Shown one piece after another: positions 40,257 to 51,337 of a DNA stretch of 51,337 nucleotides. How positions within the stretch are numbered: position 1 is the stretch's first letter; every line of letters starts with the position of its first letter. A program made the position numbers and the translations under genes. Where the stretch lies: contig NZ_KK037166.1 in the NCBI RefSeq assembly GCF_000568255.1, positions 10,364,809 to 10,416,145 on the forward strand, given 5' to 3'. This DNA is from Kutzneria sp. 744. Lineage in GTDB: Bacteria; Actinomycetota; Actinomycetes; Mycobacteriales; Pseudonocardiaceae. The notes below the pieces were generated by a model. The model made no database searches. It worked only from the letters and a program-made list of their open reading frames with translations, and was not told the DNA's origin.

Positions 40257-42062
40257 TCACGGGTGGTCGAGCAGGGCAAGCACCCTGGCCGCCATCGCGG
40301 CCGGGTCGCCGTCCTGGGGACGGAGCACGAGGGCGGGCTCGACGGGAACCTCGTAGGGATCGTCGACCCCGGTGAAGCCGGTGATCTCGCCGGCCCTGGC
40401 CCGCGCGTACATGCCCTTGGGGTCGCGGGCCTCGCAGACGTCGACGGGCGTGTCCACGAACACCTCGACGAAGGCGAGCCCGGCGGCCACGTGCCGGGCT
40501 CGCACCAGGTCGCGGTCGGCGCGGTACGGGCTGATCAAGGACACCACCGCGACCAGCCCGGCGTCGGCGAACAGCTGGGCCACCTCGCCGACGCGCCGCA
40601 CGTTCTCGGCCCGGTCCGCGGCGCTGAACCCCAGCCCGGCGTTGAGGCCGTGCCGAAGGTTGTCGCCGTCGAGCCGGTAGGCCGGACGGCCGGCGAGCAC
40701 CAAGCGGCGTTCCAGCTCGGCGGCGATGGTGGACTTGCCGGAGGCCGAGAGTCCGGTGAGCCACACCGTCAAACCCCGCGTCGCACGGTCGGATCGGCCG
40801 ACCGCGGTGGGGTGCCAGACCACGGACGCGCTGGGCTCGGTGATCATGCCGGCGGCGACCGTGTTGTTGGTGGCGTCGTCGACCAGGATGAAGCTGCCGG
40901 TCGACCGGTTGCGGCGATAGGAGTCGAACAGCAGCGGTGTCTGCGTGCGGAGCCGAACCCGGCCGATCTCGTTGAGCGACAACGAATCCGCGGCCTCGTC
41001 GCGGTGCAGGGTGTTGACGTCGATGCGGTAGGGCAGTTCCTGTACCTGGGCCCGGACCGAGCGCGTGGTGTGCCGCATCGTGTAGCGGGCGCCCGGCGTC
41101 AGCGTGGACCGTTCGGTGAGCCAGCAGACCATGGCGTCGATGTCCTGGCCGACGTGTGGCCGGTTGTGTGGACGGCAGATCAGGTCGCCGCGCGCCACGT
41201 CCAGCTCGTCGTCCAGTCGCACGGTGACTGCCTGCGGCGGGAACGTCTCGTTGACCGGTTCGCCGCCCGGCCCCCAGACTTCCCTTATCCGCGAGGGAAA
41301 ACCGGCCGGCAGCACCACGACCTCGTCGCCCGGCTTGAGCACGCCACCGGCCACGGTGCCGGCGTAACCCCGGAAGCCCTGCGCGCGGATCACATACTGG
41401 ACCGGGAGCCGCGCGTCGATGAGGTTGCGGTCCGAGGCGACGTGCACCTCCTCCAGGTGGTGCAGCAGCGAGGTTCCCTCATACCAGGGCATGTTCGCGC
41501 TGCGCTGCACGACGTTGTCGCCGTGCAGCGCGGAAACGGGCACGAACGCGAGGTCGGCCACGGTCAGCTTCATGGCGAACCGGCGGAATTCCTCGCGGAT
41601 CTCCGCGAACCGCTCGGCCGACCAGTCGACGAGATCCATCTTGTTCACGCACAGCACCAGATGCGAGACGCCGAGCAGGCTGGCGATGAACGCGTGCCGC
41701 CGGGACTGCTCGACGATGCCCTTGCGCGCGTCGACCAGGATCAGCGCCAGGTCCGCGGTGGACGCGCCGGTGACCATGTTCCGGGTGTACTGCACGTGTC
41801 CGGGCGTGTCGGCGATGATGATCTTACGCTTGGGCGTGACGAGATAGCGGTAGGCGACGTCGATGGTGATGCCCTGCTCGCGTTCGGCCCGCAGCCCGTC
41901 GGTGAGCAGGGCCAGGTTCGGTTCGTCCTCGCCGCGCGCGCGACTGGTGCGCTCCACCGCGGCGAGCTGATCGGCGAAGATCGCTTTCGAGTCGTGCAGC
42001 AGCCGGCCGATCAGGGTGGACTTCCCGTCGTCGACACTGCCCGCGGTGGCCAGCCGTAACAT
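40257..42062 (-). CDS. cysN: CysNC: sulfate adenylyltransferase GTPase subunit fused to APS kinase
   Basis: 601 residues. The N-terminal part (1-415) is the GTPase subunit of ATP sulfurylase, with P-loop GSVDDGKSTLIGRLL, DTPGHVQYTRNM (G3), NKMDLVDWS (G4) and beta-barrel domains. The C-terminal part (about 425-601) is a complete APS kinase with P-loop WLTGLSASGKST, DGDNLRHGLN, SLISPYRADRDLVRARH and DPKGMYARARAGEITGFTG. With CysD it converts sulfate to APS and then PAPS. Its start overlaps the cysD stop as ATGA. No APS/PAPS reductase or sulfite reductase is adjacent, and a sulfotransferase is encoded at 45694, so the product probably feeds sulfonation. Confidence 0.96.
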   Translation of the reverse strand: MLRLATAGSVDDGKSTLIGRLLHDSKAIFADQLAAVERTSRARGEDEPNLALLTDGLRAEREQGITIDVAYRYLVTPKRKIIIADTPGHVQYTRNMVTGASTADLALILVDARKGIVEQSRRHAFIASLLGVSHLVLCVNKMDLVDWSAERFAEIREEFRRFAMKLTVADLAFVPVSALHGDNVVQRSANMPWYEGTSLLHHLEEVHVASDRNLIDARLPVQYVIRAQGFRGYAGTVAGGVLKPGDEVVVLPAGFPSRIREVWGPGGEPVNETFPPQAVTVRLDDELDVARGDLICRPHNRPHVGQDIDAMVCWLTERSTLTPGARYTMRHTTRSVRAQVQELPYRIDVNTLHRDEAADSLSLNEIGRVRLRTQTPLLFDSYRRNRSTGSFILVDDATNNTVAAGMITEPSASVVWHPTAVGRSDRATRGLTVWLTGLSASGKSTIAAELERRLVLAGRPAYRLDGDNLRHGLNAGLGFSAADRAENVRRVGEVAQLFADAGLVAVVSLISPYRADRDLVRARHVAAGLAFVEVFVDTPVDVCEARDPKGMYARARAGEITGFTGVDDPYEVPVEPALVLRPQDGDPAAMAARVLALLDHP

Positions 42063-42973
42063 CAGAAGTAGCCCTCCTTCTTGCGATCCTCCATGCCCGC
42101 CTCGGATATCCGGTCGTCGGCGCGGGTCGCGCCGCGCTCGGTGGTCCGGCTGGCCGCCACCTCGGCGATCACGGCTTCCGCCGTGGTGGCGGTGGATTCC
42201 ACGCAGCCGGTGCAGGTGGCGTCGCCGACGGTGCGGAAGCGCACCGACGCCTCGAACGGCTCATCGCCGTCGAGCAGCGTGATGAACCTGGTGTGGGCCA
42301 ACAGCATCCCGTCCCGGTGCACGACCGGGCGCCGATGCGCGTAGTAGAGCGACGGCAGGTCGATGCGCTCGGCGGCGATGTAGCGCCAGATGTCCAGCTC
42401 GGTCCAGTTGGACAGCGGGAAGACGCGGATGTGCTCGCCTTTCCGGTGCGCGCCGTTGTAGAGGTTCCACAGCTCGGGCCGCTGGTTGCGGGGATCCCAC
42501 TGGCCGTACTCGTCACGGAAGCTGAACACCCGCTCCTTGGCCCGCGCCTTCTCCTCGTCGCGGCGCGCGCCGCCGAACGCCGCGTCGAAGCCGTTCTCGG
42601 CGATGCCGCGCAGCAATGTGATGGTCTGCAACCGGTTCCGGCTGGCTCGCGGCCCGGTCTCCTCGACGGCCCGGCCCGCATCGATGTCGTCCTGGACGGC
42701 GGCGACCACGAGCCGCACACCGAAGCGGGCGACCGCGCGGTCCCGGAACGCCAGCACTTCGTCGAAGTTGTGGCCGGTGTCCACGTGCAGCACCGGGAAC
42801 GGCACCGGCGCCGGCCAGAACGCCTTGGCCGCCAGGTGCAGCAGCACCACCGAGTCCTTGCCGCCGGAGAACAGCAGCACCGGCCGCTCGAAGGTGGCCG
42901 CCACCTCGCGCAGGACGTGCACCGACTCGGCTTCCAGGGCTCGCGGCGGGGACAGCTCGTACGCAGTGGTCAT
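42062..42973 (-). CDS. cysD: CysD: sulfate adenylyltransferase catalytic subunit
   Basis: 303 residues from ATG 42973, chosen because TTAYELSPPRALEAESVHVL matches the usual CysD N-terminus; a GTG at 42991 lacks a ribosome site. The PP-loop LLFSGGKDSVVLLHLAAKAF binds ATP, and VLHVDTGHNFDEVLAFRDRA, AAFGGARRDEEKARAKERVF, FPLSNWTELDIWRYIA and the C-terminal RKKEGYF are all conserved. It forms APS from ATP and sulfate together with CysN. Promoter region shared with the divergent SnoaL-like gene; a near-KstR-consensus site lies 32 bases upstream of the start. Confidence 0.97.
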   Translation of the reverse strand: MTTAYELSPPRALEAESVHVLREVAATFERPVLLFSGGKDSVVLLHLAAKAFWPAPVPFPVLHVDTGHNFDEVLAFRDRAVARFGVRLVVAAVQDDIDAGRAVEETGPRASRNRLQTITLLRGIAENGFDAAFGGARRDEEKARAKERVFSFRDEYGQWDPRNQRPELWNLYNGAHRKGEHIRVFPLSNWTELDIWRYIAAERIDLPSLYYAHRRPVVHRDGMLLAHTRFITLLDGDEPFEASVRFRTVGDATCTGCVESTATTAEAVIAEVAASRTTERGATRADDRISEAGMEDRKKEGYF

Positions 42974-50398: not shown

Positions 50399-51337
50399 CG
50401 TGCCGCCGCGGTGGCGGGGGAGTAGTCCGTCGCCGGCGGCTCGGCCTGCGGATCGAAGTCGAAGGGCACCCGCTGCCGACCCAACGTGCTACGGACGTAA
50501 TGACGGAGGAACCCCGCGATCACCCGAGGGTTCCGCAGCATCTGGCCCAGCGACTCGTCGAGGTTGAACACCTTGGCGAAATGCTCGTCGACCACGTCGT
50601 CCTCCCGGGCGGCGCCGACGATGAAACTGAACGCCGGACCGGACACGGCCGCCAGGACGCGGCGTCGCCACTCGGGCGGCTTCTCGGTGCCCACCGCGCA
50701 CTCGTAGCCCTGGTCCCTGGCCATCGCGAGCGACCACGGCACACGGAGCAGCTTGCGTTGGGCGGCAAGGAACCGCCCGGTGAAGTCCGCGTCGAGACGG
50801 TCGGCGCGGGCGAGGTGCTCGCGCAGCAGCAACGCCGAGCCCGACGCGGAGCTGATGCCCTGCGCGTAGAACGGATTGAACGCGCAGATCGAGTCGCCGA
50901 CGAACACCAGACCCCGCGGCGGCCGGCGGAGGCGGTCGTAGCGTCGCCACTTGTTGCCGGTGGACCGGGTCAGGTGCACCTCGGAGGTCGGGGCGCAGCG
51001 AGCCATCGCGGCGGCGAACAACGGCGTCCGCACCCGGGCCGCCGACTCGACGAACGTGTCGGTGGTGCGCGGCATCTCCAGGCCCCACGAGCCCATGCAG
51101 GCGATGACGCGGTTGCCCTCGATCGGGAAGAGGTTCACCAGGAACTCGTGCTCGGCCGGATGGTCGCCCTTGTCCGGGGTCGGCATGATCACCAGGTGCT
51201 GCCACCACCAGGAGGGCGGTCGGGGTGTCGGCAGTTCGTACCAGCGCGAGGTGTAGGTGACCTTGGCGTCGAGGGTCCGCACCTCGGGTTCGGGCCAGCC
51301 CGCCGCCACCAGCCAGCCGCTGACGGCGGAGCCACGG
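50395..51337 (-). CDS. FAD-dependent monooxygenase/halogenase-like enzyme (5' partial)
   Basis: At least 314 residues are visible; the frame stays open to the window end and reads SAVSGWLVAAGWPEPEVRTL before any good start, so the FAD-binding N-terminus lies outside. The GD motif that closes on the flavin is LVFVGDSICAFNPFYAQGIS, as in group A flavin monooxygenases and geranylgeranyl-reductase/halogenase relatives. EFLVNLFPIEGNRVIACMGS and RWYELPTPRPPSWWWQHLVI are typical of the substrate domain. It would hydroxylate or epoxidise a lipophilic substrate. First visible gene of the minus-strand set that continues with the membrane protein and TetR regulator. Confidence 0.88.
   Translation of the reverse strand, partial: RGSAVSGWLVAAGWPEPEVRTLDAKVTYTSRWYELPTPRPPSWWWQHLVIMPTPDKGDHPAEHEFLVNLFPIEGNRVIACMGSWGLEMPRTTDTFVESAARVRTPLFAAAMARCAPTSEVHLTRSTGNKWRRYDRLRRPPRGLVFVGDSICAFNPFYAQGISSASGSALLLREHLARADRLDADFTGRFLAAQRKLLRVPWSLAMARDQGYECAVGTEKPPEWRRRVLAAVSGPAFSFIVGAAREDDVVDEHFAKVFNLDESLGQMLRNPRVIAGFLRHYVRSTLGRQRVPFDFDPQAEPPATDYSPATAAAR

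What the first reader, a model, noticed from the sequence alone, without database searches (positions are those of the whole stretch)
40257..51337. Candidate lipid or steroid oxidation-sulfonation locus
A dedicated PAPS-making pair (cysD, cysNC) without reductive sulfur genes stands with a sulfotransferase, SDR, DapB-like, SnoaL-like, DUF1214, FAD monooxygenase and membrane protein, under IclR and TetR regulators. Established knowledge: CysD and CysNC make PAPS, the sulfotransferase cosubstrate. Inference: the genes form one pathway that oxidises a hydrophobic substrate and adds a sulfonate group. I know of no described pathway with this exact gene set.
Basis: inference. Interest (0 to 1): 0.72.

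Follow-up and report, generated by a model that had tools for sequence, protein, structure and literature searches.

The report
KstR-boxed sulfotransferase module with PAPS genes
A soil actinobacterium carries genes that make activated sulfate next to a sulfotransferase, and both promoters bear the DNA signal of KstR, the repressor of steroid breakdown, so these bacteria may attach sulfate to steroids while degrading them.

Summary
(1) Core: cysNC-cysD, SnoaL, IclR, DUF1214-like, sulfotransferase. In 80 named loci anchored on the DUF1214-like gene, the sulfotransferase is present in 80, cysNC in 59, SnoaL or IclR in 77.
(2) SDR-DapB: downstream here, a separate conserved pair elsewhere.
(3) TetR-membrane-FAD monooxygenase: a unit of its own; membrane protein and monooxygenase in 0 of 80 loci.
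New: the KstR palindrome TAGAACnnGTTCTA occurs twice in the 51-kb window (up to 2 mismatches), exactly in the core's two divergent promoters; a perfect copy lies within 300 bp upstream of the DUF1214-like gene in 61 of 80 loci. Counterparts form a KstR-bound mycobacterial operon (Rv3531c-Rv3529c; binding from PMC1995591). Of 394 class genomes, 48 have a DUF1214-like orthologue, and all 48 carry kshA.
Enzyme activity, substrate and purpose are inferred. My library searches found no paper linking PAPS or sulfotransferase genes to KstR.

The parts
40257..42062 (-). CysNC: sulfate adenylyltransferase GTPase subunit fused to APS kinase (makes PAPS)
   Evidence: NF004035 937 bits over cut-off 715; APS_kinase 219 bits; 51-56% identical to the CysN of the genome's two assimilation loci
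42062..42973 (-). CysD: sulfate adenylyltransferase small subunit, shares its last base with the CysNC start
   Evidence: TIGR02039 461.7 bits; 67-69% identical to the two assimilatory CysD copies against 75-93% to the module-linked CysD genes called in the named loci
43005..43018 (.). KstR-type box, 1 mismatch (TAGAACAGGTTCTT), in the CysD|SnoaL divergent promoter
   Evidence: box invariant in 12 aligned loci chosen for having it; 18 of 20 loci with SnoaL upstream of CysD have a box at up to 2 mismatches
43079..43555 (+). SnoaL-like small protein
   Evidence: SnoaL_4 103 bits; present in 41 of 80 loci, 20 genus labels
43524..44423 (-). IclR-type regulator
   Evidence: HTH_IclR 32.7 bits; 47 of 80 loci
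44434..44447 (.). Perfect KstR box TAGAACGCGTTCTA in the IclR|DUF1214 divergent promoter
   Evidence: 0.20 sites expected in the window at up to 2 mismatches, two found; perfect box within 300 bp upstream of DUF1214-like in 61 of 80 loci, permuted palindromes at up to 1 mismatch at most 4
44467..44483 (.). Putative IclR operator TGTACC-N5-GGTACA
   Evidence: 45 of 45 loci in which my gene caller found IclR carry it (up to 2 mismatches) against 2 of 35 others, and tblastn found IclR in those two as well; 80 permuted arms reached at most 3 of 45; binding itself not tested
44523..45689 (+). DUF1214-like protein, first gene of the + operon; counterpart of mycobacterial Rv3531c by gene order
   Evidence: Pfam sub-threshold; fold match 6ans, VPA0106, VPA0735; 55% identical to the L054 gene in the kshA-hsaFGE-kstD cluster
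45694..46863 (+). PF13469 sulfotransferase; counterpart of mycobacterial Rv3529c by gene order
   Evidence: 204 bits; phmmer to PDB 2zq5 E 2.6e-164; P-loop and downstream KNPSH / R...S residues invariant in 4 aligned proteins
46873..47664 (+). SDR (NF005873 type), third gene of the + operon
   Evidence: 421 bits over cut-off 346
47682..48752 (+). DapB-like / DAP_DH_C oxidoreductase, fourth gene of the + operon
   Evidence: DAP_DH_C 49 bits; SDR neighbour in 26 of 29 relatives

Best explanation
The region holds a steroid-induced sulfonation module. CysD-CysNC make PAPS from sulfate and ATP, and the PF13469 sulfotransferase moves the sulfonate from PAPS to a hydroxyl group on a steroid or a steroid-derived intermediate. 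An SDR prepares or removes that hydroxyl: the Rv3530c-like SDR in most relatives, the SDR with a DapB-like partner here. The DUF1214-like and SnoaL-like proteins assist in an unknown way. Both divergent promoters are repressed by KstR until steroid catabolites appear, and an IclR protein adds a second control at the sulfotransferase promoter. The likely purpose is conjugation: keeping hydroxysteroid intermediates soluble, less toxic and inside the cell, or parking them for later use. Shown here: gene content, co-conservation, separation from assimilation, KstR-type boxes, kshA co-occurrence. Inferred: repression by KstR, sulfonation activity, the substrate, the purpose.
For: Two KstR-type boxes in 51 kb, one in each core promoter, conserved in relatives: 61 of 80 perfect and 73 of 80 at up to 2 mismatches; 120 permuted palindromes reached at most 4 of 80 at up to 1 mismatch. 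The genome encodes KstR and a sterol ring-degradation cluster with kshA, kstD and hsaEFG, with boxes at 1-2 mismatches. DUF1214-like orthologues in 48 of 394 class genomes, all 48 also with kshA; 54 of 394 have kshA. PMC1995591 (passages) reports KstR binding at Rv3531c/Rv3532 and 6-fold derepression of its orthologue MSMEG_5932. cysNC is in 59 of 80 loci. All 6 unnamed relatives checked with a linked CysNC have further PF01507 (CysD/CysH-family) genes elsewhere, and 4 of the 6 have no other strong APS-kinase match. cysD-cysNC are in one run with DUF1214-like and sulfotransferase in L051 and L058. Bacteroides uses PAPS genes beside a cholesterol sulfotransferase (PMC9417993, passages).
Against: No enzyme activity, product or expression data. 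21 of 80 loci lack a linked cysNC (some are cut by contig ends). A box within 250 bp of CysD was found in only 2 of 34 loci where IclR, and 0 of 4 where DUF1214-like, is the called upstream neighbour; there a shared promoter has to be assumed. Divergent module copies L050, L051, L058 have no box at up to 2 mismatches, so related modules run outside the KstR regulon. The Rv3530c-like SDR found in 78 of 80 relatives is not between DUF1214 and sulfotransferase here. PMC6429209 Table 1 (passages) marks Rv3531c as predicted to be required for growth on cholesterol, but Rv3529c and Rv3530c as not. The own sterol cluster is about 1.1 Mb away, and its boxes are imperfect. Another APS kinase exists in the genome. 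Six of 54 kshA genomes lack the module. The loci are phylogenetically unequal (37 of 80 are Nocardia).
Confidence: 0.62

Rival explanations
1. Sulfonation activates rather than conjugates: the sulfate ester turns a hydroxyl into a leaving group so that an elimination or isomerisation (SnoaL- or DUF1214-like partner) can proceed within steroid breakdown.
For: Close linkage of DUF1214-like, SDR and sulfotransferase; Rv3531c is listed as predicted to be required for growth on cholesterol (PMC6429209), which suits an in-pathway step; a retinol dehydratase precedent is recalled.
Against: The sulfotransferase and SDR counterparts are not listed as required in the same table; 6 of 54 kshA genomes lack the module; the close fold matches of the DUF1214-like protein have no function named in the listing.
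Confidence: 0.13
2. The module sulfonates a non-steroid lipid or quinone (as Stf3 with Cyp128 does for menaquinone, recalled) and is merely switched on during growth on steroids.
For: Divergent copies L050, L051 and L058 lack KstR boxes at up to 2 mismatches; PF13469 enzymes have various substrates (recalled).
Against: All 48 genomes with orthologues carry kshA, which a general lipid or quinone function would not predict; the recalled Stf3 partner type, a P450, was not among the region's genes scanned.
Confidence: 0.15
3. All genes from cysNC to the FAD monooxygenase are one oxidation-sulfonation pathway.
For: Adjacency in the window; in one relative (L204) a membrane-protein homologue lies about 10 kb from a divergent module copy.
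Against: Membrane protein and FAD monooxygenase in 0 of 80 module loci; the membrane protein recurs with its own TetR; no KstR box at up to 1 mismatch in 13 loci (11 distinct places) around membrane-protein matches.
Confidence: 0.05
4. cysD-cysNC here are a spare sulfate-assimilation pair and the sulfotransferase is unrelated.
For: CysD-CysN enzymes serve assimilation in general (established).
Against: No cysH or sulfite-reductase homologue among called genes of 100 loci; the genome has two other cysH-cysD-cysN sets; linkage in 59 of 80 loci; KstR-type box in the cysD promoter.
Confidence: 0.03

Closest known systems
Mycobacterial Rv3531c-Rv3530c-Rv3529c operon of the KstR cholesterol regulon
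   Same: DUF1214-like gene first and sulfotransferase last (55% and 63% identical to the L054 copies); KstR site at the promoter (PMC1995591, passages); the sulfotransferase matches PDB 2zq5, recalled to be Rv3529c.
   Different: Window has cysNC-cysD, SnoaL and IclR beside it; the middle SDR is missing and an SDR-DapB pair follows; the locus lies about 1.1 Mb from the sterol ring cluster.
Bacteroides BT_0412-BT_0416 cholesterol sulfonation cluster (PMC9417993, passages read)
   Same: PAPS-making genes beside a sulfotransferase; in Bacteroides, Bt_0412 and Bt_0416 are induced by cholesterol.
   Different: Window genome also has sterol-degradation genes and carries KstR-type boxes at the module; product unknown here; sequence relation to BT_0416 not tested.
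Stf3-Cyp128 sulfomenaquinone pathway (recalled)
   Same: Actinobacterial PAPS-dependent sulfotransferase with an oxidising partner.
   Different: No P450 found in the region; linked instead to the steroid regulon.

Membership tests
KstR regulon | KstR palindrome at the promoter | tested here: met
   Perfect site 44434-44447 and 1-mismatch site 43005-43018, conserved in relatives
KstR regulon | KstR encoded in the genome | tested here: met
   L149:6778-7377(-) matches KstR structures, e.g. 5cw8 E 9.7e-72
KstR regulon | KstR binds and represses in vivo | not testable with these tools
   Only literature for the mycobacterial counterpart (PMC1995591)
PAPS-dependent sulfotransferase (PF13469) | Family profile match over cut-off | tested here: met
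   204.4 bits against 27
PAPS-dependent sulfotransferase (PF13469) | 5'-phosphosulfate P-loop and 3'-phosphate-binding R...S (motif roles recalled) | tested here: met
   RTGTT loop (R97-T101), R252 and S260 invariant in 4 aligned proteins
PAPS-dependent sulfotransferase (PF13469) | Transfers sulfonate from PAPS | not testable with these tools
   Needs an assay
Rv3531c-Rv3530c-Rv3529c type operon | Order DUF1214-like, SDR, sulfotransferase | tested here: not met
   Middle SDR absent in the window and in two other Kutzneria loci; the window's own SDR is of another type and lies downstream
Rv3531c-Rv3530c-Rv3529c type operon | Orthologous DUF1214-like protein and sulfotransferase | tested here: met
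   55% and 63% identity to the syntenic L054 copies; 2zq5 E 2.6e-164; the Rv proteins themselves were not compared by name
Assimilatory sulfate reduction locus | cysH and sulfite reductase with cysD-cysN | tested here: not met
   None in the window region or among called genes of 100 related loci
Bacterial sterol sulfonation cluster (BT_0412-0416 type) | PAPS genes adjacent to a sulfotransferase | tested here: met
   CysNC in 59 of 80 relatives
Bacterial sterol sulfonation cluster (BT_0412-0416 type) | Sterol sulfate is the product | not testable with these tools
   Needs enzyme assay or metabolomics
Stf3-Cyp128 sulfomenaquinone | Adjacent P450 (recalled) | tested here: not met
   No P450 among the region's genes scanned with Pfam

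The most novel reading that the evidence does not exclude
Sulfonation of steroid intermediates, fed by a PAPS synthase of its own under KstR, is a general hidden branch of actinobacterial steroid catabolism, and the unexplained Rv3531c-Rv3529c-type operon of the cholesterol regulon is its core. Sulfated steroids would then be true intermediates or storage forms of bacterial sterol degradation.
Probability: 0.38. Interest if true: 0.8.

Novelty: new variant of a known kind. Interest (0 to 1): 0.62.

Why it matters
It gives a testable function to an orphan operon that recurs across steroid-degrading actinobacteria, ties sulfur activation to steroid breakdown through one repressor, and predicts sulfated steroid intermediates that could be looked for in sterol-fed cultures. 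If right, it matters for steroid biotechnology and for understanding cholesterol use by actinobacteria.

Tried and rejected
Rejected or dropped: one pathway including the membrane protein and FAD monooxygenase; cysD-cysNC as assimilation genes; a KstR2-type site as regulator (two single-mismatch matches in the window, one overlapping the KstR box). The consensus promoter and terminator scan gave no promoter-like site and one terminator-like site, which is the palindrome at 44467. The DUF1214 fold search gave structures of unnamed function as the close matches. Fitting the IclR operator with a 6-base spacer gave nothing; 5 bases fitted.

Main-text word searches for 'sulfotransferase' found nothing in PMC9782250, PMC7807495, PMC7593942, PMC6593523, PMC4881515, PMC3068626, PMC4810484, PMC6946793; their supplements were not open to me, so induction on sterols in those data is unknown.

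Corrections made on the way: my gene caller missed some IclR, SnoaL and CysD genes (IclR 45, SnoaL 37, CysD 58 of 80), so counts were redone by tblastn (47, 41, 60). The 1e-100 cut for DUF1214-like orthologues was chosen; 20 of the 68 genomes with any match fall below it, and 3 of those 20 have kshA. The promoter alignments used loci that I chose because they carry the box, so their invariance illustrates the site and is not a count.
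Full report
What is there. The window lies in an 11.6-Mb genome; its nearest named relatives at this locus are Kutzneria buriramensis and Kutzneria sp. CA-103260 (92% and 91% identity of the DUF1214-like protein). The DUF1214 label is sub-threshold in Pfam (21.9 against 25 bits), but a confident model (mean pLDDT 88.4) matches 6ans, VPA0106 and VPA0735, which I recall as DUF1254/1214-type proteins of unknown function. The + strand genes DUF1214-like, sulfotransferase, SDR and DapB-like are spaced 4, 9 and 17 bases apart with the starts chosen here, as in an operon.

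Is the PAPS pair dedicated? PF01507 finds five genes in the genome: this cysD and two cysH-cysD sets. Both of those are followed by a CysN of 421-442 aa, too short for an APS-kinase domain, and by ABC-transporter genes of the sulfonate type; one has a sulfite-reductase-like gene (these names by inspection). APS kinase occurs twice: in this CysNC and as a short gene elsewhere, beside another protein with a sulfotransferase-like P-loop (no Pfam hit). Of 12 unnamed relatives checked, 6 have a linked CysNC. All 6 have further CysD/CysH-family matches elsewhere, and 4 of the 6 have no other strong APS-kinase match (matches of 21-23 bits, just over the Pfam cut-off, were disregarded; G314 and G303 have a second strong one). 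No cysH or sulfite-reductase homologue was found among the called genes of 100 related loci, 80 named and 20 unnamed. In L051 and L058 cysD-cysNC run in one direction with DUF1214-like and sulfotransferase with gaps of 20 bases or less; in L058 a CysQ-like gene (53% to an L224 gene of the PF00459 family) stands between them.

Conservation. I anchored on the DUF1214-like protein: 320 relatives were confirmed in genome contigs and the best 80 were kept, carrying 22 genus labels. By tblastn these 80 loci hold: sulfotransferase 80, an Rv3530c-like SDR 78 (absent only in the two Kutzneria), CysD 60, CysNC 59 (12 labels), IclR 47 (8 labels), SnoaL 41 (20 labels), window-type SDR 8, DapB 4, TetR 1, membrane protein 0, FAD monooxygenase 0, the gene at 39122 0. 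37 of the 80 are Nocardia, so label counts matter more than locus counts; some loci are cut by contig ends.

The steroid link. It fits the Rv numbers seen in PMC6429209 passages for ltp4 (Rv3522), Rv3529c-Rv3531c, hsaG (Rv3535c) and hsd4B (Rv3538); the numbers of the other genes are recalled. (b) PMC1995591 (passages) reports KstR binding at Rv3531c/Rv3532 and 6-fold derepression of the orthologue MSMEG_5932 without KstR. (c) In 394 class genomes, 48 have a DUF1214-like orthologue (E at most 1e-100); all 48 have kshA (E at most 1e-60), against 54 of 394 overall. The Fisher p-value ignores relatedness, but the 48 span four families by the tool's labels. (d) The own genome has kshA, kstD, hsaEFG and further hsa-like genes about 1.1 Mb away and a KstR. 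Against a general role: 6 kshA genomes lack the module. In the 80 named loci themselves kshA and hsaF are in 0, ltp3 and ltp4 in 3 and kstD in 1, so outside the L054 type the module mostly lies away from the sterol genes.

KstR boxes. The palindrome TAGAACnnGTTCTA at up to 2 mismatches occurs twice in the window (0.20 expected; 2 of 100 shuffles reached two): perfect at 44434 between IclR and DUF1214-like, and with one mismatch at 43005 between CysD and SnoaL. In the 80 named loci a perfect box lies within 300 bp upstream of DUF1214-like in 61 (17 of 22 labels), and in 73 at up to 2 mismatches; 120 palindromes with permuted arms reached at most 4 loci, mean 0.03, at up to 1 mismatch. 98 of 108 sites with at most one mismatch fall in the 2.6 kb upstream of the anchor, 13% of the bases. 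For CysD, a box within 250 bp was found in 18 of 20 loci with SnoaL as upstream neighbour, 2 of 34 with IclR and 0 of 4 with DUF1214-like; where IclR is upstream on the same strand, cysD would have to share the IclR|DUF1214 promoter, which is an assumption. The divergent copies L050, L051 and L058 have none at up to 2 mismatches.

A second control. TGTACC-N5-GGTACA at 44467 is in 45 of 45 loci where my caller saw IclR and in 2 of 35 others; tblastn shows IclR in those two as well. I infer the IclR operator.

The other genes. SDR-DapB is a conserved pair: 26 of 29 DapB loci have the SDR adjacent, and 22 of those 26 carry a KstR-like box at up to 2 mismatches (0 perfect, 4 at one mismatch or fewer). 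Of 120 arm permutations the mean was 0.43 but one scored 17; I suspect TGAAAC, a half-site variant, but did not print which. The pair therefore probably belongs to the sterol regulon and was drawn into this operon in the window strain. The membrane protein recurs with a TetR next to it in 14 of 19 other loci by my reading; the FAD monooxygenase is the partner in 3, and in others a gene of about 305 aa stands there, of which the one scanned is a PF10118 hydrolase. No box at up to 1 mismatch in 13 such loci, 11 distinct places.

Mechanism and doubts. The best reading is PAPS-fed sulfonation of a hydroxysteroid during sterol breakdown. PMC9417993 (passages) shows a precedent: Bacteroides BT_0416 makes cholesterol sulfate beside PAPS genes. 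PMC6678751 (one passage) notes that the mycobacterial P450 Cyp142 can use cholesteryl sulfate, a hint that sulfated sterols can enter the pathway. The substrate, the role of DUF1214-like and SnoaL, and conjugation versus activation remain open.

Print check. Nine searches of the open-access library (listings seen) and the word searches named under Tried and rejected found no report tying a sulfotransferase or PAPS genes to KstR. One paper on Rv3529c (an immune-signalling study) was seen only as a reference. Most subscription papers are not held, so this is not proof of absence.

Noticed in passing
window 48724-51337 (-): TetR, a membrane protein and an FAD monooxygenase form a unit that recurs elsewhere; in other relatives a gene of about 305 aa takes the monooxygenase's place, and the one scanned is a PF10118 metal hydrolase.
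   Followed up: partly
L152:9829-11613 (own genome, C1 near 2.02 Mb): A lone APS kinase faces a 373-aa protein with a GLPKTGTT P-loop and no Pfam match: possibly a second, unrelated sulfonation system.
   Followed up: no
L225:7561-11185 and L227:5924-10849: Other cysD-cysNC pairs in two relatives sit near genes that look Stf0-like or sulfatase-like (by inspection only), so PAPS pairs may travel with sulfur-ester genes.
   Followed up: no
L050, L051, L058: Divergent copies of the module, two of them in genomes that also have another copy, lack KstR boxes at up to 2 mismatches and in L051 and L058 are single-direction runs.
   Followed up: partly
window 44467-44483: Conserved palindrome tracking the presence of the IclR gene; a likely IclR operator.
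   Followed up: yes
window 39122-40120 (+): Gene with no Pfam or NCBIfam match, not found with the module in 80 relatives.
   Followed up: no
window 1270-2331 (+): Rieske / vanillate O-demethylase-type oxygenase next to an IclR gene at 517-1158.
   Followed up: no
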